NCBI GenBank assembly: GCA_956465555.1
Contig: OY101126.1
Coordinates: 42,501 to 106,500 of the forward strand
Direction: 5' to 3'
DNA from: Nitzschia sp. pyKryTriq1
Lineage: Eukaryota > Bacillariophyta > Bacillariophyceae > Bacillariales > Bacillariaceae
DNA length: 64,000 nt
Shown: one piece after another, positions 24,172 to 55,450 of the stretch
Layout: the number at the start of each line of letters is the position of its first letter
How positions within the stretch are numbered: the first letter of the stretch is position 1
The notes under the pieces: generated by a model
Seen by the model: only the letters and a program-made list of their open reading frames with translations
What the model was told of the DNA's origin: nothing
The model's database searches: none
Position numbers and translations under genes: made by a program

Positions 24172-25050
24172 ATGGTGATGGATTTCGACTACACGCTTCT
24201 CAAAGAAGAACAAGGAGGAGGAGGAGGGATGATGATTGAAAACAGCAACAGCAACAGCAACCGCAGCAGCAGCAGCAGCAGCCACGCGGAAGGCGCAGAA
24301 GAAAAAGAAGGCGCAGCAGAAGAACCTTCCTTTTCCGAATGGCGGATTCAAGTAGGATTAACTGTCTCTCCTTCGAAATACTACTACCCGGGAAGTGACT
24401 TTCGAAACCATGATTCAACAGGAGAAGAATCATCATCGTCATCATCATCGCCATCGAAATCCAGTCTTATTATCCTCTACATGGAATTGTTCCGACAAGT
24501 CTCTTCCTTTCGAAAGAGGGCGCAACTGAAAATCATTCCCATGATTATCGTCCGATACGTGGGTACGTTTGTCATGATAAAGATCATGGGCTTCTGCCTG
24601 GGAGTAGCAGTTGGGGTGCTGGCGCGGGCGATTGGAGACTTCTTCCTGGAGCGAATCTGCAAGACGCTCGACTCTCAAGTTCAAGCATTGGTAGATGAAC
24701 GACGCGATGAGTTTCTAGAGGCGTATGGCATCGAGTTGGGATACCACCACCAAAGCAGAGCTTATACTTGGCGCAAGCAGCAGAAGCCTTTCGCAGATGA
24801 TGATTCTCATGTGTGGCTCCGCCCAGCAGCTCGTCGTGGAGCTGCCTCGTCATCGCGTAGGCAGAAGAAGGATCAGGATCATTCTCATGTGCGGCTCTGC
24901 CGCCCTGGTCAAGCTGCAGCGACACCCTCATCATCGCGTTGGCAGAAGCGTTTCCGAAAGGATCATTCGTATGTGTGGATCCGCCTCCCTCGTCAAGCTA
25001 CAGTAGAGCCTCCTAGTACCATCTACGATTGTATTTGTTCTTTGTGGTGA
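24172..25050 (+). CDS. Divergent, shortened member of the four-TM family (copy F1)
   Basis: A 292-residue frame starting MVMDFDYTLL, comparable to MVDPDKAESSLL of other copies. The shared N-terminal block PSFSEWRIQVG and SDFRNHDSTGE are present, followed by one or two hydrophobic segments (IIVRYVGTFVMIKIMGFCLGVAVGVL). Then come the diagnostic ICKTLDSQVQALVDERRDEF and LEAYGIELGY. After DDSHVWLRP the copy departs from its relatives. The H-V-W-L-R motif is repeated three times (24806, 24884 and 24966 region) with intervening Ser/Arg-rich linkers, and the second half with TM3-TM4 is absent. It lies 16 kb from the main array. It could be a functional truncated product or a decaying copy. Confidence 0.6.
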   Translation: MVMDFDYTLLKEEQGGGGGMMIENSNSNSNRSSSSSSHAEGAEEKEGAAEEPSFSEWRIQVGLTVSPSKYYYPGSDFRNHDSTGEESSSSSSSPSKSSLIILYMELFRQVSSFRKRAQLKIIPMIIVRYVGTFVMIKIMGFCLGVAVGVLARAIGDFFLERICKTLDSQVQALVDERRDEFLEAYGIELGYHHQSRAYTWRKQQKPFADDDSHVWLRPAARRGAASSSRRQKKDQDHSHVRLCRPGQAAATPSSSRWQKRFRKDHSYVWIRLPRQATVEPPSTIYDCICSLW

Positions 25051-34783: not shown

Positions 34784-34791
34784 CGTTTCGA

Positions 34792-36722: not shown

Positions 36723-37058
36723 CTAGTAGTACATCGACGAGGAGGACCACATTCCGTCCTGCTCATCGATCGATTCAAGAATGTCAAACACATCATCAAT
36801 AACGTTGATGATTGTTTGTTGGCTGCTCATGCTGGTCCTTGGCAACAAGGAGGAGGAGGAATGCGGGGAAGAAGAAGAACCTACTACCGGAGCAGGAGGA
36901 AAAGAGAGGAAAGTTCTCGTCCCGCTTCTAGTGAACGGCCTCTTGTTGGTGGGATCAAAGGTAAAAGTCGGAACAGGAACAACTCGATGCTCGCATCGTC
37001 GTCCTAGAAGTAGAGGAGCCACTTCTACTACCAGTTGGTCGTCTGGCTCGCAATTGCT

Positions 37059-37091
<33 letters not shown>

Positions 37092-37343: not shown

Positions 37344-39006
37344 TCTTCTTCTTGTTGACGATGCCCTGTTACAATATTTGTGGGAGTCTTGGATTTCAAA
37401 CTCTCTCTCTGTCTCTTCCTCTTCTTCTTGTGCGTGATGGTTAGATCCCGTCGCGTTCGAATATTCTCTACTAGTAGACCACCGGTAGATATTGGTATAG
37501 AGAGAGATTGAAGAAAGGAAAACAGAAAGGTGCGTGGTGGTCCTCGTTGATAATGGAAGAGAATTCAGCGCTCGTTCCGAATGCGATTCGAATGCTACAG
37601 TTCTCCTTTAGAACCTTATTTAAAGTACTTCAAGGATACTCGCAGCGAATTGAAGAACGGCACGAATGAATTGTATGTGAAGGGAATTGTGTTGTCGTTC
37701 GGGAAGTAGAATTCAAGCGAGAGGCAATAATGTAAACACAACCTATTGTGCCTTATTTCTCGTATTCGCATCGGCAACTTACATGAAATGTCCACGCTCC
37801 ATGCACGCGACGAATTCGTTTGCAGTCGTCATGCATGGTGATGAATGGTCATGCATGCATGCATGCATGCATGATGGGGACATTCTTCGGACTACGTGTA
37901 CTACGCGAACTGAAAAGGAAATAATAAGCGCTGCTTGAAGTAAAATCGCTATGCGTATTAGACTCGGAAACGGAAGAATAAAAAGCAAGGCATGAGCCAA
38001 CACCACTTTTATGAGTAGTCGTACGTTAGTCTTGGAAACTACGAATGTACTCGTAAATGGAAACAATAAACAATGAGAATTGTTTCCATGGAATAGTAGA
38101 TGATCATCCTACACAATGCATGCATGCATCTACGAGGGGCCTTCAGAATGTCCGAGTGTGGTTTGGCGCTGGCAGCGCGAGATTGCGTAAGTCATGCATG
38201 GGAGTGCAGCACGGTGCACGCGATAATACCGAATCAAGAATATGATATTAATTTAACGTACAAAGCAAAAGTTCGCCTACAATTAAAATGTACCGAATTG
38301 AAAAAATGAGACTGTATGAGATACCATTGAGATTTCATTAAAGATAAGTTCTCTTATAGATTAAATGATGTATACATATCGTATGTTCGATCATGGCTCC
38401 AGAGTCATTTGTAAAGTGTGGAATCTTATCACACCCAAGGTTGTCAGTGATCGCAATAGACATTACAAGATCCAAGATCGATGTCACTCATCCATGTTCG
38501 TCCATGAGCGAATCGTCCTTGATCGAATCATTAGTGTCTGTCCTTCGCTCGGTGTTGGACTCTTCCGATCGAAGTCCCTCTTCAACAGGTTTTGGTGGTT
38601 GGTATTTCTTTCTTCTACGACAATTCTACGTAGAATAAGTACTAATGCTTTTAGCACAGGCGCCTATTCTAAATTACCGTTGAGTTTATCTCTACGGAGA
38701 ATTGTGGGGACCCTGATACTACTACTAATACTACCTCCGGGCTGGTGGTTGTGATGAAAACTGAATGACTATGTATTTATTAGTAGTACCAACAATCGTG
38801 ATGAGTGCTAAAGAGCCTAGTAGTACTGGTATAGTGGTATAGTAGTGTCGTACTGCTGGGGGTGATGTAGACGAGGAGGGCTGCGATGATTGTATGCTCA
38901 AGAAGAATAAAATAATGATGAGGGGGGTCGAGGAGGAGGCAGGCAGCGCCGCAAAGAAAGTAAAATACAACAATATCGACGACGAGGACGACGACGACGA
39001 CCGTGA
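37344..39006. other. Spacer, 1.66 kb
   Basis: Contains (GCAT)n at 37852-37871. Two overlapping plus frames at 38365-38754 and 38393-38638 (MAPESFVKCGILSHPRLSVI..) have some protein-like look but no family and are not called. A CTA/TAG-rich end precedes the stop of the next gene. Confidence 0.45.
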
Positions 39007-39675
39007 CTAGTAGTAGTGGTGGTGCAACCATGCTGGCATGATATCCTCGTCTTCTTCATCATCATGATCATTCTTGGTGGTGTCGCCGCCCCCCGTGCTG
39101 GTGGTGGAAGCATAATCTAGGACATCAAAGACAGCATCGATAATGTTGATGATTTGCTGATTGGAAGATGGGATTCTTCCTGTGCTTGAAGGGCGAGGAG
39201 GAGCAGTCGTGAAGAACAACGGCGGCATTCGGGCTTCGTGGTGTTGGCTGTGCTGAGAGGACCACGGTGCGTCGTGCTGTCTTCTTCTTAGATCATCGCC
39301 AAACAAGTAGAGGGGCGGTAGCAGTTCCCTCCCGCAAGAAGGAAGGGTGGCGGTGCTGGTAGTGGTATACTGGTGGTGCTTGTGCTGGCCGATCATGTTC
39401 ATTTCTGTTCGTTGTTCTTCTTCTTCTTCTTCCTCTTCGATCATGATGTGATGAAGAGAGGATGTGCAGTAGGTCGTGGCGGACTCCTCCTCGGCTTCTT
39501 CTCCTTCTTCATTGTGGTGGGTCATCATGACCTCGTCGAAAGTCGTTTCTCTGCGTCGCGATGCCGACGGTCGTGAGAGAGGTGGTTCTTGGTCTTCTTC
39601 TTCTTCGTCTCGAGGACTGCTGCTGATGTTGGCAGAGGAAGAATTGCTTATGTCGTTCTTTTGATGATGAATCAT
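39007..39675 (-). CDS. IIDIID-family protein, copy G5
   Basis: 222 residues from the ATG at 39675 (MIHHQKNDISNSSSANISSS). It shares MIHxQKND with G2 and the acidic DEEEEDQEPP stretch with G1 and G4. The middle is Glu-rich and His-rich. The family helix SNQQIINIIDAVFDVLDYAS lies at about residues 178-197, here followed by a 25-residue tail (Thr/Gly, then acidic DDEEDEDIMPAWLHHHYY). Confidence 0.58.
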   Translation of the reverse strand: MIHHQKNDISNSSSANISSSPRDEEEEDQEPPLSRPSASRRRETTFDEVMMTHHNEEGEEAEEESATTYCTSSLHHIMIEEEEEEEEQRTEMNMIGQHKHHQYTTTSTATLPSCGRELLPPLYLFGDDLRRRQHDAPWSSQHSQHHEARMPPLFFTTAPPRPSSTGRIPSSNQQIINIIDAVFDVLDYASTTSTGGGDTTKNDHDDEEDEDIMPAWLHHHYY

Positions 39676-39696
39676 TATTATTGTTCTGCTTGGCAA

Positions 39697-40324: not shown

Positions 40325-41160
40325 GTCGTCGTCGCGTCGTCGCTTCTTCGCGTCGTCGTCTCTCGCGTCAAGCGGAACGTGAAAACCGGAAAAAAAACCA
40401 ATTCATTTCATTCATGTCATGCTGGGTGTCGAGACTATTGTCTTGCATTGTCTAGCAGTTTGTCCTGTAGATCGTCCGTAGAAACTGTACTAGTTCCGGT
40501 GCGTCCAGTTGGACATCTCGAAATGCGGCAACCCGACGTCGGCGGGCGAGGCATAGATTGATTCCGACCGTCTTTGATCATACTGTATTTGCAATCTCAA
40601 GCATTGGATACACTATACGAATTGTCATCCGCCTCAGCCTCAGCCTCATCATCATCAGCCTGATCATCATCATCATCATCATCATCATCATTTTCTGCCA
40701 ACAACAAAAACAACACTACCAGTACCTCTACTTCTACGACGTCAACATTATGGCATAGGGAATGTCCCGATCGGACCTTTCATGCCAAGGGATTGTGGAT
40801 CACTGCGAAAAGCATTACTACGAAAGAAGAAGGAGGAGGAGAAGAAGAAGCATCATCATCATCGCCATCACCACCCGCTTCTTCTTTCCTCACCAGACTT
40901 ATTGGCTGCCATGGTCGGTTCGAGTAATTTTGGAAGACGCACTGTAGTTGGGAACGGGACATGGAAAGCAATCTGATTTTGATATTTCCACCGAGGACCA
41001 CCACCGATTCTTCTACTTCATCTACTTCATATGATGATTCTACTTCATTGGTCATCGTCATCGTCGTCGTCATCGTCGCTTGCCACACAATTTTAAGACG
41101 AATGGAAGCTCTTGTTGAGTCATTCTTCCGAACAAACAACAACAACAACAACAACAACAA
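40325..41160 (+). repeat. Left arm of long inverted repeat
   Basis: The segment is the reverse complement of about 54490-55450, easily aligned from the GTCGTCGCGTCGTCG-rich outer end through CAGTTGGACATCTCGAAATG, CCGACGTCGGCGGGCGAGGC and TTTGATCATACTGTATTTGC to the inner end ACTCAACAAGAGCTTCCATT (seen on the other strand). It holds open frames on both strands that are partly conserved between arms. On the minus strand these are VVLGGNIKIRLLSMSRSQLQ, CVFQNYSNRPWQPISLVRK and a shared stop after AVIHNPLA. This may be a captured gene fragment. Confidence 0.85.
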
Positions 41161-41219
41161 CATGGGCGGCCGCAGCGGGCGCACCATTCGTAGCCGTAGT
41201 TCCTGCCATCTGTGGAAGC

Positions 41220-41642
41220 TTGTTCTTTTAGTGTGTCTTGCACTTCATGTTCCAGTGGGTGGAGCGACGAGGATGATGCAGGCAAGCCAAACAAGGACAA
41301 GTGGTGGCCGAAACTGTCACTCGCCTCTTGAACAGCAATAACGAACAGGACTTCGACGAGGACGAGGACACACAGAGCAGGACGATGTTGAAAGACCAGA
41401 CGAGGAATCATCTTTGTGAATACACTTTTAATTCCAATCTCGTTGGGTATACTTTGCTTTGGCATGACTCTCCTCCTCGGGAAGGTCGCTTGAGCACGTC
41501 GTCCACTCGATATCAACTTGTTCGAACGAGAACAGTGGCAGTCGGAACAGCATCATTAGAGGAAAAGAAGACGGGAACAAATGAGGAGGATGAGGATACC
41601 AGCACTACGAGGAACACTCTCCGCTTGAGACTACGTATATAG
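41220..41642 (+). pseudogene. 4-TM family 3' fragment (copy F2)
   Basis: Starts abruptly just inside the left inverted-repeat arm, at the position corresponding to TM4 of the family (FQWVERR-like). It continues with VVAETVTRLLNSNNEQ (frame shifted in part), then LVGYTLLWHDSPPREGRLST and RYQLVRTRTVAVG. It ends in TLRLRLRI, closest to copy F4 (..ALRLRL). The whole first half of the gene is missing. Confidence 0.75.
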
Positions 41643-41740
41643 CAGCCAGTCATCTACTGTACTGTATTAGACTATGTACTTATTCGCCCTGCTACCAGTG
41701 CAGAGAATCGTGATTGTTGTTGCTGGTGTTGTTATTATTA

Positions 41741-43198
41741 TTATACAATCTCAAGGCTGCTCCTGCTACTAGCGTCGTCGTCGTCCTCATCCGTATTAAT
41801 TGTGGCCGCATGTTCATCTGACGTTGGTCTTGGTGGTCGAACGACGAGTTGATACCTTGTGCTTGTCAAGCGGCGGCCTTCTACTGGAGAGTCAAGGAAT
41901 AGTAATGAATAACACCCCGCGAGATTTGTTGGACTGAAAGCACATCCATCAGCAGTCGTAGCATGATCCATTACATCATCTTTGATATCGTCCTGCTGCT
42001 CTTCCTCGTTATCGTTGTTCAACAACAAGATACGGGTGACAGTTTCGGCCACTCGTTGTTGTGCTTGTAGGTGCTGTCTCTTCACAATCCGAGACAAGAC
42101 ATACAAGACACCAAAGAACAAGAACAAACCACACCAATATCCTCCCACTCCAATGTACGAAGCAATGATTGGAGCAAAGATCGCGTAGGGAATCATGAGG
42201 CAAAAGACTAGCAGCGCCAAACGGCTCATATTTGGATTGACTTTACTCATCGTCTCCTTGTGAGTGTTTTGAATCAACGTCCAAGTCTCCTTGTCGAGTC
42301 CCACACTCGAATGATATTCTTCTTCGTGAAGGTGAATGTCTCCGGGGACTAAAGGACTTAGATAGATGGGAGGGAAATCTTCGTGGCGAGTATTGGGAGA
42401 GACCGATGACCTTGCTCTCACAACTGCTCCGCCAGGTGTTTCTTCGACTAGTATTTCTTCTTCTTGTTGACGAGGCCGACGGAGCCACACATGAGAGTTA
42501 TCATTGAAGAGACGATACTTCTCGGAATCATTATGGCATTGGTATCCTAGGTCGATGCCATACGTCTCTAGAAACTCATCGCGTCACTCGTCTACCAATG
42601 CTTGAGCTTGAGAGTCGAGTGTCTTGTAGATTCTGTTCAAACACAGTATTCCAATCGTGAACGCCACCGCCATGATTGCTAGGACTAGTATTGCCACCGC
42701 AATTCCCACGAGAGCAGGGGTCGCGGCGCCAGCAGCAGACGCACCACCAGTCTTATATTTGGCGCTTTGTTTCATTATTGCATTGATAATGAAAAGCGGA
42801 CCGATAATCACAGCAAGGTAGAGGACCAAAAGCAAGCAATGTATTTTGACTTGTGCCCCTGTTTTGCCTTTTGCCCCACTTTTAAGCGCACAAACTTGCA
42901 GCAACAAGTTCATGTAGACTTTAGCGGGTAGAATGGATTCTCCCGTATCATGGGTTCGAAAGTGCCATCCCTTACAGTGTTGAGAATGAAAGGCGGCGTT
43001 ACCTCCTAATCGAATCTGCCACTCGGAAAAGGAAGGTTCGTTTTTTTCTTCTGCGCCTTCCGTGTTGTTGCTGTTTTCAATCATCCCTCCTTCTTCTTTG
43101 AGGAGAGGCGATTCCACCTTTTCGGCGGGGTCCGTTTCTTGGACTTTACTACGATTTCCAGACCATGATTCTTCTTTTGTGAATGAAGAAGCGGGCAT
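41741..43198 (-). pseudogene. 4-TM family member with a single in-frame TGA (copy F3)
   Basis: The two open parts 43198-42584 and 42490-41741 lie in the same frame. The only interruption is a TGA at 42581-42583 where the intact copies have CGA (..ALVDE-R-RDEFLE..). From the ATG at 43198 (MPASSFTKEESWSGNRSKVQ; frame open up to 43234) the copy keeps FSEWQIRLGGNAAF, KTLDSQAQALVDE, WLRRPRQ, FPPIYLSPLVPGDIHLHEEE, four hydrophobic segments, RVAETVTRILLLNN and the C-terminal SSLEIV. It is transcribed away from F4 from a shared 460-bp upstream region. Read-through or a recent null allele are the alternatives. Confidence 0.78.
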
Positions 43199-43354
43199 TA
43201 CGATGGTCAGCAACCACCGAAACAGATCACACACCAGCAGAAAAGAAAAAGATTATGTACCGGTACTCAATCGTATTGTTCTTTGCCCGCTTTAAGCCTG
43301 GGCGGCGGCGTTCGGCGTTTGTGATGCATCGCGGGGTTTCGTATAAAATCCAAG

Positions 43355-43495
43355 CATGCGGGAAATATCGCATCGGCCGGCCGGCGCGGACATGCGACTA
43401 ATACCACCGTAGAATTCTCTACTGAGGCTACAGAACCGCGAGGTCGTATTTTGGACAAGGCGATCCAAGATAGAAAAGCATCACACATTTTCTAT
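43355..43495. promoter_or_regulatory. Shared upstream module between divergent F3 and F4
   Basis: It contains CGGACATGCGACTAATACC, a TCTACTGAGGCTACA stretch, CGCGAGGTCGTATTTTGGA and AGAAAAGCATCACACATTTT. All recur upstream of other family copies. Here the module lies between two divergent genes and could serve both. Confidence 0.55.
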
Positions 43496-43694
43496 CACCA
43501 AGCGCATAAACATACCGGTAATATCGAAGCGCATCACAGAACACGTTCTTGTGTGACCTTGTTTGCTATGTTGTCTACCGGTAATAAAAGTAGAGAGTAC
43601 GTACCATACATAGAGTAGGCTACTCTTCCTTTCCTGCAGACATGCATTAATAGTGCTCGTCCTTTCAACTTGTTCCATTCCGCTCGCCTCGAAT

Positions 43695-45075
43695 ATGTCT
43701 CCTAATGAGCCAATCCCAACATCTACTACAAGTAGAGATGATTACAGCATAGTCGAAATGGTGGATCCCGACAAGGCAGAATCGTCGCTGCTCAACAATA
43801 CAGAAGCAGGGAAGATTGAAAACAGCAACAGCAACAGCGAACTACTACTACAAGGGAAGTGACTTTCGAAACCATGCCACAGGAGAATCCATTCTCCCCG
43901 CTGAAGTATACATGAACTTGTTCCGACAAGTCACGGCCTTTCGAAACAGGGCGCACCAGAAAGTGAGTTTCTGGCACGCGTTGATCACTGCCGTTCCCGC
44001 ATCTATATTGAACGTGAGCGTATTCAGTTCACTGAATGGCGATAATAAGTCTATTGGTACATATGTGGCCAGTATTGTTGGAATCATGGTTGGAGTGGCA
44101 CTGATTGCTCCTGCTGTGGCGATAGGAAGCATTTTCCTCAATCGAATCTACAAGACACTCGACTCTCAAATTCAAGCCTTGGTAGACGAGAGTCACGATG
44201 AGTTTCTCGAGTCGTTTGGAGTCGAGTTGGGATATCAATGCCCCAGTACTACTACTACTACTACTACCACTGATATGTCGATCATGAATCGTTTCGCGAA
44301 TGATGACTCGCATGTGTGGCTCCGCCGGCCTCGTCAAGAAGAAGAACAAGCCGAAGCACTTGAAAAGGTAGCGACAGTACCCTCGTCGGTCGCTACTCCG
44401 GAAGAGTTCCCTCCCATCTATCTACGTCCCTTGGTCCCCGGAGATATTCATCTTAACGAAGAAGAGTATCATTCCAGTATGGGAATCGATGAACAGACTT
44501 GGAGGTTGATTCAAAACACTCACAAGGAGACGCTACAGATCATCCGGCATTTTATGTACGATGTGGCGTTGGTGCTTGTTTTACTCTTGGTTCCGTATGT
44601 GTTGGGTATTGGATGGCCCGTCTACTGGTACGTTTTGGCGATGTGTTGCGCTTTTCTGAAGGTGCATGAACGATACCAGCAAGCGCCACAACAAGTGGCA
44701 GAAACTGTCACTCGCATCTTGAACAGCAATGACGAACAGGACGAGGATGAGGATGAGGAGACCAACGCCAGCAGGACGATGCTGAAAGACGATGCGACGA
44801 ATCATCCCAACCTCGTTGGGTATTCTTTGCTTTGGCACAACTCTCCTCTGGAAGGTCGCTCGAGGACGTCCGCTCGATATCAACTCGTTCGAACGAGAAC
44901 AGTCGGACCAACCCCATTTGATGAAAAGAATAAGACGGGAACGAATGAGGATGAGGAGGATACCAGCACTATGGGAACGAATGAGGATGAGGAGGATAGC
45001 AACACTACGGGGACGAATGAGGACGAGGATACCAGCACTAATATGAGGAGGAGCGCTCTCCGCTTGAGACTATAA
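43695..45075 (+). pseudogene. 4-TM family member with N-terminal deletion/frameshift (copy F4)
   Basis: The N-terminal frame (MSPNEPIPTSTTSRDDYSIV then EMVDPDKAESSLL..IENSNSNS) ends at a stop near 43860. The rest of the family frame (YYYKGSDFRNHATGE to the end ALRLRL) is open from 43816 on but lacks an upstream ATG. Compared with F7, about 100 bp encoding the PSFSEF..GGN block are missing between AACAGCAACAGC and GAACTACTACTACAAGGG. The deletion put the two parts out of frame. TM1-TM4, IYKTLDSQIQALVDE, WLRRPRQEEEQ, GDIHLNEEEYHSSMG and QVAETVTRILNSN are kept. The C-terminus has three copies of TGTNEDEED-like repeats. Confidence 0.7.
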
Positions 45076-46135
45076 TATAATATCCAGTCATGATGTAAGT
45101 CGTGGTCTAACCTTACTTTCAGACTATCTTAGTATCATCTGTCTCAGTCAAAAGCAAGCCATTACTAGTAGAAAAAGTAGTAGTAGCTATCCCTCTTGAG
45201 GAGAGGAGTACTAGTTCGTTGGTACTCGTAGGCTCGTAGCTAGGACGCCTATGAGTACTACGAGTAATAATAACTGCACTCGGCTCCGCTCTCCGCTAAG
45301 ACTATCAATAGTAGAGTTCCGATTATCATTTCGCGTGGTTATTGGCTTATTGCTTGACCGTAGTACTGGTGGTGGTACGCTATTCAGAAAGATACACCAA
45401 AAAATACTGCATGGAAGCAATCATCGCGTAAGTAAAAGTAGTAGTTGTCGAAGAAAACCCAATATCTCATCACCAATTCACACCAGCAGACAGCAGAATA
45501 AGGCTCAAGTGAACGTCGGAAGAACGTCCCTCATCTTGATTCTTTGATACGACCGATAATACAAAAACAGCCTCGCTTATTGTTCTTGCCTGAAAGAGTT
45601 TCTCATTTCATGGTGCATGATCATGCTCCTCAATATTATAACAATCGTGGTCCTACTACTAGTAGTAGTAGTCCTTGCGAGAAGTGATATTAAATTGCAA
45701 TGCTGTGTGGATACATAGTACAGCCCGATGTATTCGTTACGTACGTGACGCACGAGACCTGAAGAATCGAATAATCGTTTGTTGTTTGTTGGGCTGTTGT
45801 TTGTTCTTGTTCTTGTTTTGCTTTTGTTCCTCCATGTTCGTTGTACGCTCAGTAGTCTATACTGTATTCATCCGACGACGTGAAGTGATACTAATGAAGA
45901 TATAACGAATGTGAACACAACAACGAAGGAATGAGCCACCATCCATCATCCATCATTCATGCGCACGGGTCTGCTTTGGCTTTTTCGCATTAATACGAAC
46001 AAGATTGAGATTGTGAGATCTTCGTGGGGCGCCGGGCGGCTGTGAGGAATGACGCACTTCGATCCAATAAGGAATCATCAGCATCATCATCATCATCAAG
46101 TCAAGTAGTCTATGTACAGTAGTGTCATCATCATC
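45076..46135. other. Spacer between F4 and F5
   Basis: Near 45275-45310 a short stretch (CTCCGCTCTCCGCTAAGACTAT) resembles the extreme 3' end of family genes, suggesting another lost copy. The remainder shows no gene. Confidence 0.5.
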
Positions 46136-46137
46136 AT

Positions 46138-46255
46138 CTGCGCGGTCCTGACGCTGCGCGGGCATGCGACTAAGACCGTCGTAGTATTTACACTGCGGCT
46201 ACGCAATACCGAGAAAAGCAGCGTCACCGCTAACATTATATTTTCAGTCATGCTG
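46138..46255 (+). promoter_or_regulatory. Upstream module of F5
   Basis: GCGCGGGCATGCGACTAAGA is followed by CCGTCGTAG, a CTGCGGCTACGCAATACCG stretch and AAAAGCAGCGTCAC, about 200-300 bp before the F5 start. The same string lies upstream of F6. Confidence 0.55.
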
Positions 46256-46447
46256 GATTTTCTACTGCTGCGTATCCCCGCGCACCATACAGTACCAACC
46301 ACCATACCATCATCATAACACAGAGCGTTGCACACGCATCAAACAATAACATACCGGTACCCTATCTTTCTTCTTGTGTGATCTGTTTCGTTCATTCACA
46401 AACGAATCAACTTCCTCGTCTGGAAATTGTAACATTGTCCAAGAAAT

Positions 46448-47803
46448 ATGGATACCGAAAAGGCGGAATCGCTGCTCAAAGAAGGAGGGCGGACGGTGAT
46501 TGAGTACAACAACAACAACAACAGCAGCAGCAACACGGAAGGCGCAGAAGATGCAGCAGAAGAAAAAGAAGAACCTTCCTTTTCCGAGTGGCAGATTCGA
46601 TTAGGAGGAAACGCCGCCTTTGATTCTAGACACTACCGGGGATGTGACTTTCGAAACCATGATACAGGAGAATCGATTCTACCCGCTGAGGTATACATGA
46701 ACTTGTTCCAACAAGTTGGTGCCCTCAAAAGTAGGGTAAAAGTCAAAATGAGTTGCTTGTTTCTGGTCCTATACCTTGCTGTGATTATCAGTCCGCTTGT
46801 CATTCTCAATGCAATAATCGATGATGATAGCGCCAACGACAATGCTCTCACGGGAATTGCGGTGGCAATAGCAGTCATGGCGGTCGCGTTTGCGATTGGA
46901 AAACCATTTACGAATAGAATCTACAAGACACTCGACTCTCAAGCTCAAGCATTGGTAGACGAGCGACGCGATGAGTTTCTAGAGACGTATGGCATCGACC
47001 TAGGATATCAATGCCATAATTTGGAGAAGAATCGTCTCTTCAATGATAACTCTCGTGTGTGGCTCCGCCGGCCTCGTCAAGAAGAAGAAGAAGAAGAAGC
47101 ACCTGCTGAAGGAGCAGCGACAGCACTCTCATCTTCGGTCGCTCCTCCGGAAGCGTTCCCTCCCATCTATCTCACTCCTTTAGTCCCTGGAGAAATTCAC
47201 ATTCTCGAAGCACGCTACCATTCGAGTATCGGACTGGACAAGGAGACTTGGACGTTGATCCAAAACACTCACAAGGAGACAATGCAAAAAGTCAACCCAA
47301 CTATGAGACGGGTGGCGTTACTATTCTCATTACTCATGATTCCCTACGCGGTCCTTGCTCCAGTCATTGCTTCGTATATTGGAGTGGGAGGATATTGGTG
47401 TGGTTTGTTCTTGTACTTTGGTGTCATGTATGTCTTGTGTTGGATTGTGAAGAGACAGTACCTACAAGCACAAAAACAAGTGGCCGAAACTGTCACCCGT
47501 ATCTTGTTGTTGAACAACAATGACGAAGAGCAGCAGGACGATATCAAAGATGCAGTAGTGGCTCATGTTGCTGCTCCTGCTGCTCCTGCTGATGGATATG
47601 CTTTCAGTCCAACCAACAATCTCGCGGGGTGTTATTCATTACTATTCCTTGAATCTCCTTTGGAAGGGCGCTTGACGAGCACAAGGTATCAACTTGTTCG
47701 AACACGAACAAGACCAACATCAGATGATGATGAAAAGACAGTTGTTACAAGCACCACTATGGATGAAGAGGACCAGGCAACTAGCAGCCTTGAGATTGTA
47801 TAA
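46448..47803 (+). CDS. Intact four-TM membrane protein of unknown family (copy F5)
   Basis: 451 residues starting MDTEKAESLLKEGGRTVIEY. Order: Asn/Ser linker; conserved block EPSFSEWQIRLGGNAAF..CDFRNHDTGESILPAEVYMN (residues ~40-82); TM1 ~100-122 (SCLFLVLYLAVIISPLVIL); TM2 ~137-158 (GIAVAIAVMAVAFAIG); cytosolic-type helix NRIYKTLDSQAQALVDERRD; DNSRVWLRRPRQ and an acidic Ala/Glu linker; FPPIYLTPLVPGEIHILEAR; HSSIGLDKETWTLIQNTHKE; TM3 ~287-309; TM4 ~313-334; helix QAQKQVAETVTRILLLNN; and NLAGCYSLLFLESPLEGR..STRYQLVRTRTR before an acidic end SSLEIV. No signal peptide. The two halves (two TMs, a Gln/Leu helix, a strand-rich end with R-rich motif) look like an internal repeat. Function unknown. 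Confidence 0.8.
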   Translation: MDTEKAESLLKEGGRTVIEYNNNNNSSSNTEGAEDAAEEKEEPSFSEWQIRLGGNAAFDSRHYRGCDFRNHDTGESILPAEVYMNLFQQVGALKSRVKVKMSCLFLVLYLAVIISPLVILNAIIDDDSANDNALTGIAVAIAVMAVAFAIGKPFTNRIYKTLDSQAQALVDERRDEFLETYGIDLGYQCHNLEKNRLFNDNSRVWLRRPRQEEEEEEAPAEGAATALSSSVAPPEAFPPIYLTPLVPGEIHILEARYHSSIGLDKETWTLIQNTHKETMQKVNPTMRRVALLFSLLMIPYAVLAPVIASYIGVGGYWCGLFLYFGVMYVLCWIVKRQYLQAQKQVAETVTRILLLNNNDEEQQDDIKDAVVAHVAAPAAPADGYAFSPTNNLAGCYSLLFLESPLEGRLTSTRYQLVRTRTRPTSDDDEKTVVTSTTMDEEDQATSSLEIV

Positions 47804-48208
47804 CCATAACAACAACAACAGCAACAACAGCAGCAACGATTCTCAAAGCGGCTGCTACTGGTAGTAAGAAGAATTAGTACATACATGTCAAGTTCCAGTA
47901 CTGCTACTAGCTAGAGTACCCACTACTAGCTAGTAGTAGTATCACCCACAGAGGGCAAAGAAGAAGATGCTGCTCCTTCTTACCAACGTAGACGAGTAGT
48001 AGTAGCTACTAGTAGTCTGTCCTCTAGCACTGCCGCTACTACTAGCCGTAGTGGTTGCAGCACTGCCCAAAGACGAGGCCAACGACCGCAGCAACTCACG
48101 AAACATATCACACTCCACCAGAAGAAGATTGTATGATATTGTTATTAGCCCGCTTGCTCCTGATACAGTAGCTTGTCTATGTGATGCATCCAACGACGAA
48201 CAAAAGAA

Positions 48209-48362
48209 GAAGCTTGCGGGAAACTTAGCATCGGCCGGCGCGCGGGCATGCGACTAAGACCCTCGTAGAAAAGTCTACCCAGGCTACACAACGGAGAGGT
48301 CGTATTTTGGAAAAACCAATCCAAGAGAGAAAAGCATCACATTTTCTACGTACCGCTCACAT
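48209..48362 (+). promoter_or_regulatory. Orphan upstream module after F5
   Basis: GCGGGCATGCGACTAAGACC..GAGAGGTCGTATTTTGGAAA..AAAAGCATCACATTTT closely matches 52434-52588, which leads into F7. Here homology stops at about 48362 and unrelated sequence follows, so the gene that this module should drive is missing. Confidence 0.6.
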
Positions 48363-48764
48363 TAAGGTGGCGTACTAAAAAATATGGGCAGAAAAGGACT
48401 GAATTAGTGTTTCCTGTAGAATCCGGTACTCAAACGTACACGACTGGATCGCAATCTCGCCGAACTAGATAGCCAATTTCGGCGAGCTACTTGGATGCAT
48501 TATATGTGTCAGACGTTAATGTTGCGCATGCAATACTTTTTACTTAGACTGTGTAGATGGTAACTTTTGACTGTTTGGAGAGTTTCCGCACCTTCAACGG
48601 AAACCTAGTGCCTAGGTAGTCATTTTGTCCTAAATAGCCGGTTTCTAGCCTTCCTAACTTTATACAGACATGAGGAAGTGCGGAACTTTCGGAAACTAGG
48701 CGAAGTTAACGTCCCTGGCATATATAGAGTAGACTAGTAATGAACTTCTTTCATGTGGGATACT

Positions 48765-49365
48765 TTATTCATCGTCTTCCAGCTGCATTCCATCGAACAT
48801 TGCTATCTCGTCATTTTCACTGTAACATGGAATCTCTTTTGAGTCGTCTGAGTCGCACTCTTCATCCTCGTCTGCAAAGTCGTCCATGGCTGAATTCCAT
48901 TCGCGTACCGGTCCACGCAGGGATAAGTACCGTGAGAAAATGTCGCAGCGACATACCAATGCACTGAATATGCGCAATAATACGGATACTCGTAAACGAA
49001 CTGCTGCCAAGGCGCCATAAAGCAATGAGAAAGCACTCACCATAATATACTTCTGCATCCTCGTCCCAGGAAAACATTGCATCATGCCATCGGGCGATGT
49101 CAAAGTCAAAAGCAGGATGACCAATGCATCGGAAGGATCCAGGAAGATGACCCACACGGTCACATGTCTGGCAGGTAAGTGTTGCATCAAAGGGAGGAAT
49201 GGTTACTTGACTTCGTACAAGCTGACACCATGTTTCCATATTATCTTCTTGATATTGAAGATTTATGGGCGTCGCCTCTGATGTAGTCGTATTTTCTTCG
49301 TCGTCGTTTTCCGAATCCTTCCCTTTGCGCCGTCGCCCTTTGTATTCCGCCGCCGCTGCCGCCGC
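48765..49365 (-). CDS. Two-exon coding remnant with Cys pairs, unknown
   Basis: Minus strand; proposed exons about 49365-49041 and 48988-48765 with GTGAGT donor and TTTACGAG acceptor. Exon 1 reads RRRKGKDSENDDEENTTTSE, NLQYQEDNMETWCQLVRSQV and ATLTCQTCDRVGHLPGSFRC, then DIARWHDAMFSWDEDAEVYY. Exon 2 reads IFSALVCRCDIFSRYLSLRG and an acidic end MQLEDDE. The Cys/His spacing hints at a small zinc-binding module. There is no start codon before the junction with the Copia fragment, so it is probably a fragment of a larger gene or of a transposon. Confidence 0.4.
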
Positions 49366-49370
49366 TGCCA

Positions 49371-49891
49371 AGAACCCAAAGCACATCAACTCGTTGAGGA
49401 CATTCGGAGAAATGGCAGTAGTTACGGACATGGGCGATCGAACTATTCGCTCGAAGCTCAAATTACGAGGTAAAACTTGTATACTCGTAGGGTATCCGGA
49501 AGACACAACAGGCGACTGCTATCGATTGTGGAATTTGGAGACCGGTAAAATCATAAAAACACGCAACATCTTGTGGCTCAACAAATTGTACGGCGAATAC
49601 ATGGGCGACCGAGCCCGCGATTCGCTCGCATCGAACTATGTCATCAATGTGCTGGACTCTGGTACAGACGGTGACGTGGAATTGCTAAGCCCTCCACACA
49701 TGCCAGAAAGAGAAGCAGACGAAGAACAGGCGTTAGAAAACCCGACGGGCGCCACTCACACACCGCCAGGCGCAATAGATACACTAAATGATAGACCCGG
49801 CGAATCAAACGATCCGACAGAGAGGGGGAGCACCACAGCCCCCGAAATAAACCTTGTTGGTCGAAAATTCGTCGGTCTCGGCGTCGAATAG
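49371..49891 (+). pseudogene. Ty1/Copia polyprotein fragment (post-integrase linker)
   Basis: LRTFGEMAVVTDMGDRTIRS, KLKLRGKTCILVGYPEDTTG and CYRLWNLETGKIIKTRNILW match the familiar stretch after the Copia integrase core (x-R-x-F-G ... R-S-K-L ... K-x-x-F-L-G-Y ... Y-R-L-x-N ... R-D-V). It is followed by an acidic linker and stops before any reverse transcriptase. Both ends are truncated. Diatom genomes are rich in Copia elements. Confidence 0.75.
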
Positions 49892-50351
49892 CGCCGTGTT
49901 CGTCATTTTCCTTTCGTGTTCGTTTACGTTTGTTCCAGCTAGACTTACGGTAAGTGATCGATAATTTGGGCTAGCAGAAAGTAGCGATTCGGTGTACTAG
50001 TAAGCTTCAGGCTTTAGTACTGTACAGTATGTTGCGAAGTCTCTAGTCTAATGAGTCGTACGATATGTCCTACGAATCTCTCGTTTTCCAAATTATGACT
50101 ATTTTAGATGTCTACTTTCTGCTGCTTCTTTTACTTTCCAGACCCGCACTTTAGGTCGTGTTTCGGAGTATAAATCGTGTTTAGATCGGAGTGTAGTTCG
50201 TGTTTAGGTCGGAGTATAATTCGTGCTTCTTGGTCTGTCTAGTTCATCGATATAGTCTAGTAGATGTCGATCTCGTATTGTTTGAGTAACGAGTCGAGTC
50301 ACGACGTCTGTACGTCGTTCGATGTACGTCACAATCAATGATTCTCAACAG

Positions 50352-50470
50352 GCGCGTTCCTGACGCGCTGCGCGGGCATGCGACTAAGACCGTCGTAGTA
50401 TTTGTACTGCGGCTACGCAATACCGAGAAAAGCAGCGTCACATAACATTATATTTTCAGTCATGCTGGAT
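50352..50470 (+). promoter_or_regulatory. Upstream module of F6
   Basis: It carries GCGCGGGCATGCGACTAAGA and the same following words as 46138-46255. Spacing to the F6 start is like that in F5. Confidence 0.55.
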
Positions 50471-50665
50471 TTTCTACTGCGTGTCCCCGCGCACGATACA
50501 GTACCACCCACCATACCATCATAACACAGATGAGCGCATCGCACAAGCATCAAACAATAACATACCGGTACCTTATCTTTCTTCTTGTGTGATCTGTTTC
50601 GTTCATCGTTCATTCACAAACGTATCATCATCCTCGTCTGGAAATTGTAACATTGTCCAAGAAAT

Positions 50666-52021
50666 ATGGATACCGAAAAGGCGGAATCGCTGCTCAAAGA
50701 AGGAGGGCGGACGATGACTGAGTACAACAACAACAACAACAACAACAGCAGCAGCAACACGGAAGGCGCAGAAGATGCAGCAGAAGAAAAAAAAGAACCT
50801 TCCTTTTCCGAGTGGCAGATTCGATTAGGAGGAAACGCCGCCTTTGATTCTAGACACTACCGGGGATGTGACTTTCGAAACCATGATACAGGAGAATCTA
50901 TTCTACCCGCTGAGGTATACATGAACTTGTTCCAACAAGTTGGTGCCCTCAAAAGTAGGGTAAAAGTCAAAATGAGTTGCTTGTTTCTGGTCCTCTACCT
51001 TGCTGTGATTATCAGTCCGCTTGTCATTCTCAATGCAATAATCGATGATGATAGCGCCAACGACAATGCTCTCACGGGAATTGCGGTGGCAATAGCAGTC
51101 ATGGCGGTCGCGTTTGCGATTGGAAAACCATGTACGAATAGAATCTACAAGACACTCGACTCTCAAGCTCAAGCATTGGTAGACGAGCGACGCGATGAGT
51201 TTCTAGAGTCGTATGGCATCGACCTAGGATATCAATGCCATAATTTGGAGAAGAATCGTCTCTTCAATGATAACTCTTGCGTGTGGCTCCGCCGGCCTCA
51301 TCAAGAAGAAGAAGAAGAAGCACCTGCTGAAGGAGCAGCGACAGCACTCTCATCTTCGGTCGCTCCTCCGGAAGAGTTTCCTCCCATCTATCTCACTCCT
51401 TTAGTCCCCGGAGACATTCACATTCTCGAAGCACGCTACCATTCGAGTATCGGACTGGACAAGAAAACTTGGACGTTGATCCAAAACACCCACAAGGAGA
51501 CAATGCAAAAAGTCAACCCAACTATGATACGTGTGGCGTTACTATTCTCATTCCTCATGATTCCCTACGCGGTCCTTGCTCCAGTCATTGGCTCGTACAT
51601 TGGAGTGGGAGGATATTGGTGTGGTTTGTTCTTGTACTTTGGTGTCATGTATGTCTTGTCTCGGATTGTGACGCGACAGTACCTACAAGCACAAAAACAA
51701 GTGGCCGAAACTGTCACCCGTATCTTGTTGTTGAACAACGATAACGAGGAAGAGCAGCAGGACGATATCAAAGGTGAAGTAGTGGCTCATGTTGCTACTG
51801 CTCCTGCTGATGGATATGCTTTCAGTCCAACAAACAATCTCGCGGGGTGTTATTCATTACTATTCCTTGAATCTCCTGTGGAAGGGCGCTTGACGAGCAC
51901 AAGGTATCAACTTGTTCGAACACGAACAAGACCAACATCAGAGGATGATGAAAAGACGGTTGTTACAAGCACCACTATGGATGAAGAGGACCAGGCAACT
52001 AGCAGCCTTGAGATTGTATAA
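50666..52021 (+). CDS. Intact four-TM membrane protein (copy F6), near-identical to F5
   Basis: 451 residues, same architecture as F5. Scattered replacements are visible (for example RDEFLESYGI for RDEFLETYGI, IVTRQ for IVKRQ, one Gly for Ala in TM3, shorter Glu run). Flanks on both sides are also nearly identical to those of F5, so a segment of about 2.2 kb was duplicated. Intact reading frame despite duplication suggests both are or were recently functional. Confidence 0.8.
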   Translation: MDTEKAESLLKEGGRTMTEYNNNNNNNSSSNTEGAEDAAEEKKEPSFSEWQIRLGGNAAFDSRHYRGCDFRNHDTGESILPAEVYMNLFQQVGALKSRVKVKMSCLFLVLYLAVIISPLVILNAIIDDDSANDNALTGIAVAIAVMAVAFAIGKPCTNRIYKTLDSQAQALVDERRDEFLESYGIDLGYQCHNLEKNRLFNDNSCVWLRRPHQEEEEEAPAEGAATALSSSVAPPEEFPPIYLTPLVPGDIHILEARYHSSIGLDKKTWTLIQNTHKETMQKVNPTMIRVALLFSFLMIPYAVLAPVIGSYIGVGGYWCGLFLYFGVMYVLSRIVTRQYLQAQKQVAETVTRILLLNNDNEEEQQDDIKGEVVAHVATAPADGYAFSPTNNLAGCYSLLFLESPVEGRLTSTRYQLVRTRTRPTSEDDEKTVVTSTTMDEEDQATSSLEIV

Positions 52022-52433
52022 CTAGAACAACAACAGCAGCAACAACAGCAGCAGCAACGATTCTCAAAGCGGCTGCTACTGGTAGTAAGAAGAATTAGTA
52101 AATACATGTCAAGATCCAGTGCTGCTACTAGCTAGAGTACCCACTACTAGCTAGTAGTAGTATCACCCACAGAGGGCAAAGAAGAAGATGCTGCTCCTTC
52201 TTAGTACAAACGTAGACGAGTAGTAGTACTAGTCTGTCCTAGCACTGCCGCTACTACTAGCCGTAGTGGTTGCAGCACTGCCCAAAGACGAGGCCAACGA
52301 CCGCAGCTACTCACGAAATAGATCACACTACCACCAGAAGAAGATTGTATGATATTGTTAATAGCCCGCTTGCTCCTGATACAGTAGCTTGTCTATGTGA
52401 TGCATCCAACAACGAACAAAAGAAGAAGCTGGC

Positions 52434-52588
52434 GGGAAACTTCGCATCGGCCGGCGCGCGGGCATGCGACTAAGACCCACGTGGAAAAGTCTACCCAGGC
52501 TACACAACGGAGAGGTCGTATTTTGGAAAAACCAATCCAAGAGAGAAAAGCATCCCATTTTCTACGTACCAGTACGTGTACCGCTCAC
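52434..52588 (+). promoter_or_regulatory. Upstream module of F7
   Basis: GGCGGGAAACTTCGCATCGG, GCGGGCATGCGACTAAGACC, GGCTACACAACGGAGAGGTC and AAAAGCATCCCATTTTCTAC lie about 270-400 bp before the F7 start. The module overlaps the downstream flank shared by F5 and F6. Confidence 0.55.
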
Positions 52589-52838
52589 ATAAAAACATCA
52601 GAACAATAAACACTCGCGTTGATCTCGCACTCGCACGATCTTTCATCTTTCATTATTTTGTTGGTATACTGTACGAGTACTTCATACTTCCTTCTTATAC
52701 TGTACATTCAACGAGGAAACCAGCAGTGCTCGTATGTACTTATTTCAGCTTGTTCCATTCCTCTCGATTACGGTCTCCTAATAAAAATAATCAGCCAACG
52801 TCTGAAGATCATCATTATTACAGCAGCATAGTCGAAAT

Positions 52839-52891
52839 ATGGTGGATGATGATGATTCCTTAAAGGCAGAATCGCTGCTCAGGATTGAGAG

Positions 52892-52923
<32 letters not shown>

Positions 52924-54278
52924 ACAACACGGAAGGCGCAGAAGATGAAAACGAAGAAGAACCTTCCTTTTCCGAATTTCGGATTCAAGTAGGTGGAAAC
53001 ACTGTCTTTCCTTCGAACTACTACAAGGGAAGTGACTTTCGAAACCATGACACGGGAGAATCCATTCTGCCCACTGAAGTATACATGAACTTGTTCCGAC
53101 AAGTCTTTGGCGTTCGCAATGGGGCGCAACAGAAAACGTTTCTCTTGTTCATTGTCCTCTACATGTTTGTCATGACCGGTCCCATTTCCGATTTGAATAC
53201 GACCCTATTCATTGCCCTGAACGATGACGACAAGTCTACTGGTAGCTACATGGCCATTGTTGTTGGAGTCTTGGTTTCAGCAACCATGATGGCTCTGGCG
53301 TGGAAGATTGGAAACTTTTTCCTGGAGCGAATCTACAAGACACTCGACTCTCAAGCTCAGCAATTGGTGAATGAGAAGCACGACGAGCTTCTAGAGTCAT
53401 ATGGCATCGAGATTGGATACCAGAAATGCAAATCTTTTTTTACTTCTTCGAGCATGATGAAGCGTTACGTCAATGATGACTCTTATGTGTGGCTCCGCCG
53501 ACCTCGTCAAGCTGTTGCTGTTGCTGCAGCAACAGCAGCAGCAGCGACATCCTCCTCATCGCTCTCTCCTCCACCGCCCAAAGAGTTTCCTCTCATTTAT
53601 ATTTGTGCTTTGGTCCCCGGTGATATTCACATCAACGAAGAAGACTATCATTCCAGCATGGGATTCGATGAACAGACGTGGAAGTTGATTCAAAAGACTC
53701 ACAAGGAGATGCTGCAAAAGCACAATCCCTTTATGAACCGTTTGGCGATCGTCCTGTTTTTAATCTTGATTCCGTATGCATTCGGTGGTGCCTTTATTGC
53801 CTATCACATTGGATTTGCCGCCTACTGGACTGGCTTCCTCCTATACTTTTGTGTCTTGTATCACTTTTTCCAGTGGGTGGAGCGACGACACAAGCAAGTG
53901 CAACAACTGGTGGCCGAAACTGTCACTGGTATCTTGAACAACAACAACAACAACAACAAAACCACCGGTTACAGCAAATATAAAGACGATGAAGACAGGA
54001 TGATGCTGAAAGACGATCCGGATCTTGTTTCTGAAGAAGAATATACTTTCAATCCCAACCTTGTTGGGTACTCTTTGATTTGGCAGGACTCTCCACCTCT
54101 GGAGGGCCGCCGGACTTCCACTCGCTATCAACTCGTTCGAACGACTAATACATCCGATTGTCAAAAGAGGGCGGATGATGAGGATGATAATGATACTACT
54201 ACTACCCGTAGCAGCCAAGAAGAAGAAGAACAAGAAGAAATAAGACTCGAGCACTCCTCTCCGCTTGAGATTCTATAG
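52839..54278 (+). CDS. Intact four-TM membrane protein (copy F7), diverged paralogue
   Basis: 479 residues, start MVDDDDSLKAESLLRI. Same order of blocks as F5/F6 but clearly older divergence: EPSFSEFRIQVGGNTVF, SDFRNHDTGESILPTEVYMN, two N-terminal TMs (LLFIVLYMFVMTGPISDL; MAIVVGVLVSATMMALAWKI), RIYKTLDSQAQQLVNEKHDE, WLRRPRQAVAVAAATAAAA, LVPGDIHINEEDYHSSMGFD, TM3/TM4 (LAIVLFLILIPYAFGGAFIA; AAYWTGFLLYFCVLYHFF), QQLVAETVTGILNNNN and GYSLIWQDSPPLEGRRTSTR. The closing SSPLEIL matches SSLEIV. The conserved blocks define the family. Confidence 0.8.
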
Positions 54279-54489
54279 CGATCGACTGCATCCTGCTATC
54301 AGCGAAAGCAAGGCCCAAACTCTTACAAAGTAGTACCAGTACTAGCTAGTAGTATCCCCCCTCTTCCTCTACTCCCTACTCAACTACTACTACTAGTAGT
54401 AGTACCTTGGAGGTGTATGGTACCTGGTAGTTTGATGGGAGGACGCCTCCGTTACGAGTTATACTACTGTGGTATAGTGTATACTGCAT

Positions 54490-55450
54490 GTTGTTGTTGT
54501 TCTTGTTGTTGTTTGTTCGGAAGAATGACTCAACAAGAGCTTCCATTCGTCTTGAAATTGTGTGGCAAGCGACGACGACGACGACGACGACGACGACAAT
54601 GACAATGACAATGACGATGACAATGAAGTAGAATCATCACATGAAGTAGAAGAATCGGTGGTGGTCCTCGGTGGAAATATCAAAATCAGATTGCTTTCCA
54701 TGTCCCGTTCCCGCCAACTACAGTGCGTCTTCCAAAATTACTCGAACCGACCATGGCAGCCAATAAGTTTGGTGAAGAAGAGAAGAAGAAGAAGAAGAAG
54801 CGGGTGGGGATGGCGATGATGATGATGCTTCTTCTTCTTCTCCTCCTCCTTCTTTCGTAGTAATGCTTTTCGCAGTGATCCACAATCCCTTGGCATGAAA
54901 GGTCCAATCGGGACGTTCCCTATGCCATAATGTTGACGTCGTAGAAGTAGAGGTACTGGTAGTGTTGTTTTTGTTGTTTTTGTTGTTGGCAGACAATGAT
55001 GATGATGATGATGATCAGGCTGATGATGATGAGGCTGAGGCGGATGATAATTCGTATAGTGTATCCAATGCTTGAGATTGCAAATACAGTATGATCAAAG
55101 ACGGTCGGAATCAATCTATGCCTCGCCCGCCGACGTCGGGTTGCCGCATTTCGAGATGTCCAACTGGACGCACCGGAACTAGTACAGTGTCTACGGACGA
55201 TCTACAGGACAAGCATGCTAGACAATGCAAGACACTAGTCGGCGAGATGTCCAACTGGACGCACCGGAACTAGTACAGTTTCTACGGACGATCTACAGGA
55301 CAAGCATGCTAGCTAGACAATGCAAGACAATAGTCTCGACACCCAGCATGACATGAATGAAATAATACTGTAATGAATTGGTTTCTTTCCCGGTTTTCAC
55401 GTTCAGCTTGACGCGAGAGACGACGACGCGACGACGCGACGACGACGACT
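54490..55450 (-). repeat. Right arm of long inverted repeat
   Basis: Inverted copy of 40325-41160, about 215 bp after F7. It carries an extra internal tandem duplication (about 55152-55345). The unit contains GATGTCCAACTGGACGCACC, GAACTAGTACAGT and CTACGGACGATCTACAGGAC, and occurs twice here but once in the left arm. The plus frame at 54562-54819 (VVLGGNIKIRLLSMSRSRQL) corresponds to the minus frame of the left arm. CAA/GAC microsatellites differ in length between arms. Confidence 0.85.

What the first reader, a model, noticed from the sequence alone, without database searches (positions are those of the whole stretch)
41220..54278. Tandem array of an apparently undescribed four-transmembrane protein family
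Seven copies (F1 at 24172-25050; F2-F7 at 41.2-54.3 kb) share a block order I do not know from any named family: SFSEWQIRLGG, FRNHDTGESILPAEVYMN, TM-TM, IYKTLDSQAQALVDE, HVWLRRPRQ, LVPGDIHxxEExYHSSMG, ETWxLIQxTHKE, TM-TM, QVAETVTRIL, GYSLLWxxSPLEGRxSTRYQ. Three copies are intact and four are damaged in different ways. This is the birth-and-death pattern of a rapidly evolving family, perhaps in sensing, recognition or defence.
Basis: partly seen in the sequence, partly recalled or inferred. Interest (0 to 1): 0.78.

Follow-up and report, generated by a model that had tools for sequence, protein, structure and literature searches.

The report
Diatom tandem four-transmembrane protein family
A diatom chromosome carries seven copies, three of them intact, of a membrane-protein family that matches no catalogued family searched; distant relatives turn up elsewhere, and selection preserves the parts predicted to lie inside the cell rather than anything exposed outside, so it looks like a real but functionally unexplained family rather than a demonstrated sensor or defence gene.

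Summary
Seven related copies lie at 24.2-25.1 and 41.2-54.3 kb: F5, F6, F7 intact; F1-F4 damaged in four different ways. Searches of the 40.65 Mb diatom genome found no further convincing copy. No Pfam or NCBIfam cut-off is reached and PADLOC gives no hit. With low-complexity stretches removed, a protein search found seven relatives outside the window (E 3e-80 to 3e-25, 27-40% identical), so the family is not unique to this genome. The window's copies form one clade (100/99): a local expansion. A model of a relative (pLDDT 74) shows two helical hairpins plus small beta strands. dN/dS is below 1 in 10 of 10 pairs; constraint sits in non-membrane blocks (omega 0.33-0.46), while the first hairpin gives 0.58-2.2, all seven intervals including 1. 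Predicted far-side loops are short, so outside recognition has little support. Best reading, unproven: an endomembrane scaffold or adaptor with a conserved cytosolic face, evolving by birth and death.

The parts
24172..25050 (+). F1: N-terminal half only (SFSEW, DFRNH, TM-TM, KTLDSQ blocks, then a degenerate repeated SHVWLR stretch); pseudogene or half-gene
   Evidence: tblastn matches 24325-24936 only; no second half found in 23.4-26.4 kb
41205..41642 (+). F2: C-terminal relic from the fourth TM onward, with two stops; abuts an inverted duplication ending at 41159
   Evidence: tblastn 41211-41621, genome search, three-frame reading
41741..43198 (-). F3: full-length gene with one premature TGA near 42584
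43758..45075 (+). F4: N-terminal deletion with frame change near 43838; remainder open
46448..47803 (+). F5: intact, 451 aa
50666..52021 (+). F6: intact, 451 aa, 93% identical to F5
52839..54278 (+). F7: intact, 479 aa
46140..48354 (+). Segmental duplication unit A (F5 plus flanks, including a copy of the element that lies upstream of F7)
   Evidence: blastn 94.5% to 50352-52570
50352..52570 (+). Segmental duplication unit B (F6 plus flanks)
   Evidence: blastn
43358..43494 (+). Conserved upstream element of F4 (core CATGCGACTAATACC at 43391), in the interval between divergent F3 and F4
46163..46177 (+). Core motif CATGCGACTAAGACC upstream of F5
48216..48354 (+). Second copy of the F7-type upstream element, downstream of F5
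50377..50391 (+). Core motif upstream of F6
52430..52570 (+). Upstream element of F7 (core at 52463)

Best explanation
A family of four-TM endomembrane proteins known so far only from this diatom and a few unnamed relatives. Each protein has two transmembrane hairpins; both termini and the long middle segment lie on one side, most likely the cytosol. Long helices run out of the membrane and short beta strands flank them, together forming a conserved cytosolic face; I infer that this face binds other proteins or itself, so that the protein acts as a membrane scaffold or adaptor, with the hairpins mainly as anchors. A hydrophobic C-terminal tail ending in Val or Leu may serve ER export or PDZ/GRASP-type binding. 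The copies here arose by local duplication and are being lost by deletion, nonsense and truncation. Shown: copies, damage, duplication, one clade, relatives elsewhere, constraint on the non-membrane blocks. Predicted: four TMs, hairpin topology. Inferred: cytosolic side, scaffold role, sorting signals.
For: Two hydrophobic pairs and two long helical hairpins in the model of relative P0003, pLDDT 74, pTM 0.65. In F5 and F7, the two proteins examined with hand-set TM bounds, basic residues outnumber acidic ones in 7 of 8 terminus-side flanks (one is even) and the TM1-TM2 loop is net acidic. Omega in pooled non-membrane blocks 0.33-0.46 with upper bounds at most 0.68 in 8 of 8 pairs; TM1-TM2 0.58-2.21 in the 7 pairs where it could be computed (8 of the 10 pairs were run). 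The DFRNxxTGE, PPIYLxxLVPGDI..E..YHPSM, TWxLI..TH and SxRYQLVR blocks persist, with substitutions, in relatives. 9 of 12 readable C-termini end in two hydrophobic residues with final Val or Leu (F3, F5, F6, F7, P0001, P0002, P0003, P0005, P0007; F1 and F2 left out; F3, F5 and F6 are close kin). A C-terminal valine acts as ER export signal in connexin 36 and others (PMC11470877, passages).
Against: No expression, localisation or interaction data. The model is of a relative, from 13 rows; the window protein's own model was poor (pLDDT 44). TM3-TM4 shows some constraint (omega 0.38-1.03; one interval lies wholly below 1), so a membrane-borne function is not excluded. In the recent pair F5/F6 the first hairpin has no replacement in 52 codons, and for F5/F4 the point value was saturated while the unsaturated resamples gave 0.21-0.85: both run against free drift of that hairpin. 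The longer TM1-TM2 loop of F3 carries three lysines and no acid, against the positive-inside argument. Three C-termini (F4, P0006, P0008) lack the tail.
Confidence: 0.4

Rival explanations
1. A diversifying sensing, recognition or defence family: tandem copies vary to track changing partners.
For: Tandem birth and death; TM1-TM2 omega point estimates of 1.78 (F3/F5) and 2.21 (F3/F6).
Against: Both those intervals include 1 (0.80-7.06, 0.89-8.89); F3 carries a stop, so relaxation would raise omega too; short predicted far-side turns; whole-gene omega 0.41-0.63.
Confidence: 0.15
2. A channel, pore or transporter built from two hairpins that oligomerises.
Against: TM1-TM2 is only 28-36% identical between F7 and each of F3, F4 and F5 and its omega is near 1; no Pfam transporter or channel family over cut-off; the multidrug-transporter row EbrA for P0006 (E 3e-4) has 21 bits against a cut-off of 160; no Foldseek match with E <= 0.001.
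Confidence: 0.2
3. A membrane enzyme such as isoprenylcysteine methyltransferase, as a source names relative P0002.
For: A source calls P0002 'protein-S-isoprenylcysteine O-methyltransferase Ste14'. One histidine, in the TH of the TWxLI..TH block, is nearly invariant.
Against: P0002 has no ICMT hit at E <= 1; the genome has two separate PF04140 matches on other contigs and none in this array; the histidines of the GDIHxxExxYH block vary among relatives.
Confidence: 0.03
4. A decaying family without present function: all copies are on the way out.
For: Four of seven copies damaged; weak constraint in the first hairpin and tails.
Against: Three intact frames; omega with upper bounds below 1 for whole genes in 10 of 10 pairs and for pooled non-membrane blocks in 8 of 8 pairs, including the recent F5/F6 pair (0.45, 0.27-0.88); conservation to distant relatives.
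Confidence: 0.15

Closest known systems
Unnamed relatives P0001 and P0002 (431 and 469 aa; source jgi)
   Same: Same block order over the full core, 39-40% identity, E 3e-80 and 5e-75; N-terminal AESLL/AELL peptide and hydrophobic C-terminus
   Different: Single proteins on contigs of 3.1-3.3 kb, organism unknown; they branch outside the window's clade
More distant relatives P0003, P0005, P0006, P0007, P0008
   Same: Core blocks and TM pairs where covered; E 1e-39 to 3e-25
   Different: 27-35% identical; P0005 and P0007 lack the N-terminal part; the AESLL peptide is absent in P0003, P0006 and P0008
Connexins and pannexins (four-TM, termini inside; structural analogy only)
   Same: Four TMs with cytosolic termini (recalled); a C-terminal valine in connexin 36 (PMC11470877, passages); weak structural rows
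   Different: No such family among the profile hits or the PDB sequence hits; predicted far-side turns are short, whereas connexins have structured extracellular loops (recalled)
ICMT / Ste14 (PF04140)
   Same: Name given by a source to P0002; both are multi-TM
   Different: No profile match; the genome's ICMT matches lie elsewhere

Membership tests
Family defined here (window copies plus P0001-P0003, P0005-P0008) | Shared core: DFRNxxTGE, PPIYLxxLVPGDI, TWxLI..TH, SxRYQLVR around two TM pairs | tested here: met
   truncated rows (F1, F2, P0005, P0007) cover only part
ICMT (PF04140) | Profile match over the curated cut-off | tested here: not met
   No hit in 7 window frames at E <= 10 or 8 relatives at E <= 1; none in this array in the whole-genome scan, 4 candidates scored
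Tetraspanin | Profile match | tested here: not met
   Not among the hits for the 7 window frames at E <= 10 or the 8 relatives at E <= 1
Tetraspanin | Large second extracellular loop with CCG (recalled) | tested here: not met
   The turn between the last two helices of the P0003 model is 3 residues; no CCG stands between TM3 and TM4 in the alignment
Connexin / pannexin | Profile match | tested here: not met
   Searches list no such family
Connexin / pannexin | Fold | tested here: inconclusive
SLATT / prokaryotic-type defence effectors | Profile match | tested here: not met
   0 of 13 members hit PADLOC at E <= 1; no SLATT family. PADLOC is a prokaryotic defence library
Diversifying recognition family | dN/dS significantly above 1 in an exposed region | tested here: not met
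   No interval lies wholly above 1 in the 8 pairs and 3 regions run; low-complexity stretches and the tail were not tested for significance
Diversifying recognition family | Polymorphism between strains | not testable with these tools
   One genome only
Internally duplicated (two-fold) membrane protein | Sequence similarity between halves above control | tested here: not met
   hhalign score 29.3 against 29.6 for the reversed control, though 0 of 100 column shuffles reached it

The most novel reading that the evidence does not exclude
The family founds a new membrane-protein superfamily: two TM hairpins whose stalks jointly carry a composite beta head, arranged as two similar halves, with the head fixed by selection while the first hairpin varies between tandem paralogues, letting one cytosolic machine be placed in different membranes or lipid settings.
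Probability: 0.15. Interest if true: 0.6.

Novelty: new member of a known kind. Interest (0 to 1): 0.35.

Why it matters
It adds a real membrane-protein family that the libraries searched do not hold, with relatives outside this genome, and gives alignments (A2; A4) by which others could find it. The split between constrained non-membrane blocks and a fast first hairpin is a testable hint on how it works. The kind of thing, a tandem family of restricted distribution under birth and death, is common in eukaryote genomes (established knowledge), so the interest is moderate. A practical lesson: searches with the full protein gave nothing, while the core without low-complexity stretches gave seven relatives, so 'orphan' status in such repeat-rich genomes can be an artefact of search filters.

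Tried and rejected
Orphan status: rejected. Full-length searches found nothing at E <= 1 (F5 alone) or E <= 10 (alignment A1), probably because candidates sharing low-complexity words filled the limit (inference); the trimmed core found 8 proteins, one of them (P0004) the window's own F1. The word filter means that more relatives may exist.

Other family members in the genome: four weak rows on C9, C6, C2 and C5 (E 0.08 to 4.3) were dropped. Two (L021, L022) fall in unrelated frames rich in acidic and low-complexity residues; two (L019, L020) cross stop codons. The tool scores only its best candidates, so the absence of more copies is not absolute.

Sub-threshold family rows: Pam17 in 4 of 13 members (best E 0.025), DUF485 and MFS_1 in 2 each (best 0.0036 and 0.0079), CobD_Cbib in 1 (0.0033), all under their cut-offs and scattered over the TM pairs (one search shows 25 of its 34 families); EbrA for P0006 (3e-4, 21 bits against 160). 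The profile against the PDB gave 10 rows, nine or ten of them receptors of the GPCR type, best E 0.11. Read as chance matches of hydrophobic helices.

Internal two-fold repeat: secondary structure suggests it, and an early comparison of halves gave P 0.008 over one helix, but the halves align no better than a reversed control. Not claimed as shown.

Rfam on 40-56 kb: four miRNA-family rows, all below their gathering scores and over one simple repeat, dismissed.

Relatives in viral contigs (34 pattern matches, none confirmed) and in bacterial and archaeal genomes (31 pattern matches, none confirmed): none.

N-terminal AESLL-like peptide as vacuolar di-leucine signal: in 7 of 11 readable N-termini (F3, F4, F5, F6, F7, P0001, P0002; not F1, P0003, P0006, P0008; F2, P0005 and P0007 left out as truncated). 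It resembles only loosely the diatom motifs EGTPLL and EASPLL quoted in PMC11085791 (passages), so it is kept as a lead only.

Organism: a diatom, from 8 silicon-transporter matches and 72 matching stretches of chlorophyll-binding proteins. The nearest solved antenna chain is 6ly5_A, 303 bits over 168 residues, which I recall as Chaetoceros gracilis; the species is not identified. The small-subunit rRNA search did not complete.

Literature: searches on diatom orphan or lineage-specific tandem families and on diatom assemblies and Chaetoceros genomes (in one search, 12 of 17 papers listed) showed no title or abstract start that describes this family; no paper was read for that purpose. This does not show that it is not in print. 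Passages only were read of two papers on sorting signals.
Full report
What is there. The window is C12:42501-106500 of a 40.65 Mb, 20-contig genome. Eight silicon-transporter (PF03842) matches over cut-off and 72 matching stretches of chlorophyll-binding proteins mark it as a photosynthetic diatom. Seven related copies are present. F5 (46448-47803), F6 (50666-52021) and F7 (52839-54278) are intact. F3 (minus strand, 43198-41741) has one in-frame TGA. F4 starts at 43758, loses the SFSEW region and changes frame, its first frame stopping after 34 codons; the remainder is open. F2 is a C-terminal relic next to an inverted duplication (40433-41159 against 54489-55240, 89.6%). F1 is an N-terminal half. 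Single-protein searches of the genome with F7, F4 and relative P0003 found no further convincing copy; the tool scores only its best candidates.

How the array grew. F5 and F6 sit in a 2.2 kb segmental duplication, 94.5% identical (46140-48354 and 50352-52570); dS between them is 0.047. A Copia-like fragment (SH3_retrovirus domain, E 3.9e-12, 49265-49891) lies between the two units. F3 and F4 are divergent, with 559 bases between their first ATGs. An upstream block with the core CATGCGACTAANACC occurs five times exactly: upstream of F4, F5, F6 and F7 and once downstream of F5. These five are the only exact matches found in the genome, against 0 for the pattern read backwards. With three mismatches allowed the window holds 7 matches against 5.1 expected, so only the exact form is distinctive. 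The pattern was chosen from these very copies. It may be a shared promoter element or only duplicated flank: neither is shown.

Relatives. Pfam and NCBIfam give nothing over a cut-off and PADLOC nothing at E <= 1. The PDB gives no significant sequence match, best E 0.11 for the profile. Searches of 5.8 billion proteins with F5 and with the full-length alignment found nothing. After leaving out the low-complexity stretches, the same database gave 8 proteins at E <= 10, all at E 2.5e-25 or better; one is F1 itself, seven are from elsewhere. They share the core blocks. A tree of 12 rows (F3 by its C-terminal part; F1 and F2 left out) puts the window copies in one clade (100/99), sister to P0001 and P0002 (100/99 for that larger group), with F4-F7 and F3-F5-F6 as two groups inside. 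So the expansion is local while the family is older. The source organisms of the relatives are not known. A scan of bacterial and archaeal genomes and one of viral contigs confirmed none.

Architecture. Hydropathy gives two hydrophobic pairs. The model of F7 from six rows is poor (pLDDT 44); that of P0003 from 13 rows is fair (pLDDT 74, pTM 0.65): strand 39-42, helices 71-110 and 121-168, strands 171-176 and 188-193, then helices 250-296 and 300-340, strands 349-357 and 365-373. The helices are 40-48 residues long, so they should run well beyond the membrane (inference). In F5 and F7 basic residues prevail in 7 of 8 terminus-side flanks and the TM1-TM2 loop is net acidic, with TM bounds set by hand; the longer F3 loop is instead basic. 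Both termini and the middle segment are therefore probably, not certainly, cytosolic. Fold searches gave no significant match. The apparent two-fold plan is not supported by sequence, since a reversed control scores as well.

Selection. Whole-gene dN/dS is below 1 in 10 of 10 pairs, with bootstrap upper bounds of 0.56 to 0.88. By region (8 of the 10 pairs), pooled non-membrane blocks give 0.33-0.46. TM3-TM4 gives 0.38-1.03. TM1-TM2 gives 0.58-2.21 in 7 pairs, all 7 intervals including 1; the pair F5/F4 was saturated, its unsaturated resamples giving 0.21-0.85. In the recent pair F5/F6 the first hairpin has no replacement in 52 codons, too few changes to judge. The last beta hairpin (SxRYQLVR) is among the most conserved segments (0.11-0.32 in the six pairs). 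These regional values rest on few codons, and pairs are not independent. F3 and F4 are broken, which may raise omega on their branches.

Reading. The conserved part lies outside the hairpins, on the side of the termini, and the predicted far side offers little surface. This argues for a membrane-anchored scaffold or adaptor rather than an outside receptor. The tail of hydrophobic residues ending in Val or Leu (9 of 12 readable C-termini) resembles the C-terminal valine signals used for ER export, as in connexin 36 (PMC11470877, passages); this is a lead. The name Ste14 given to P0002 by a source is unsupported.

Verdict. The proposed sensing or defence role lacks support. It is a new family of an ordinary kind, with an uneven spread of constraint that deserves a localisation experiment.

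Noticed in passing
28294-39696, minus strand (ORFs 28294-28671, 29629-30186, 36723-37343, 39007-39696): A second set of four small low-complexity ORFs sharing a QxIIxxIDxVFDIL-like motif near the C-terminus, lying between F1 and F2; a genome search with one of them listed only itself and one weak hit on C14. Three of them have no Pfam match.
   Followed up: partly
34558-35379 and 35412-35744: Two adjacent ORFs share a near-identical N-terminal stretch (TDKASGASHRRSSKQQQGSRF...) and C-terminal end; the longer one has no Pfam match at E <= 0.01.
   Followed up: partly
40331-41159 and 54489-55449: Inverted duplication, 88-90% identical, bracketing the main array; its inner edge abuts the truncated F2.
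   Followed up: partly
49265-49891: Copia-like retroelement fragment (SH3_retrovirus domain, E 3.9e-12) between the two duplicated units; 'Copia-like' is my reading of the translation.
   Followed up: partly
17791-19362: Bicarbonate transporter (PF00955, E 3e-99), an SLC4-type gene.
   Followed up: no
about 24790-25010: F1 contains an apparent three-fold repeat of the SHVWLR segment before its stop (by eye).
   Followed up: no
G000 contig C1, 79892-317295: Five of the eight silicon-transporter matches lie within about 240 kb of one contig.
   Followed up: no
61796-63031: Methyltransf_16 (lysine methyltransferase) domain ORF with long low-complexity inserts.
   Followed up: no
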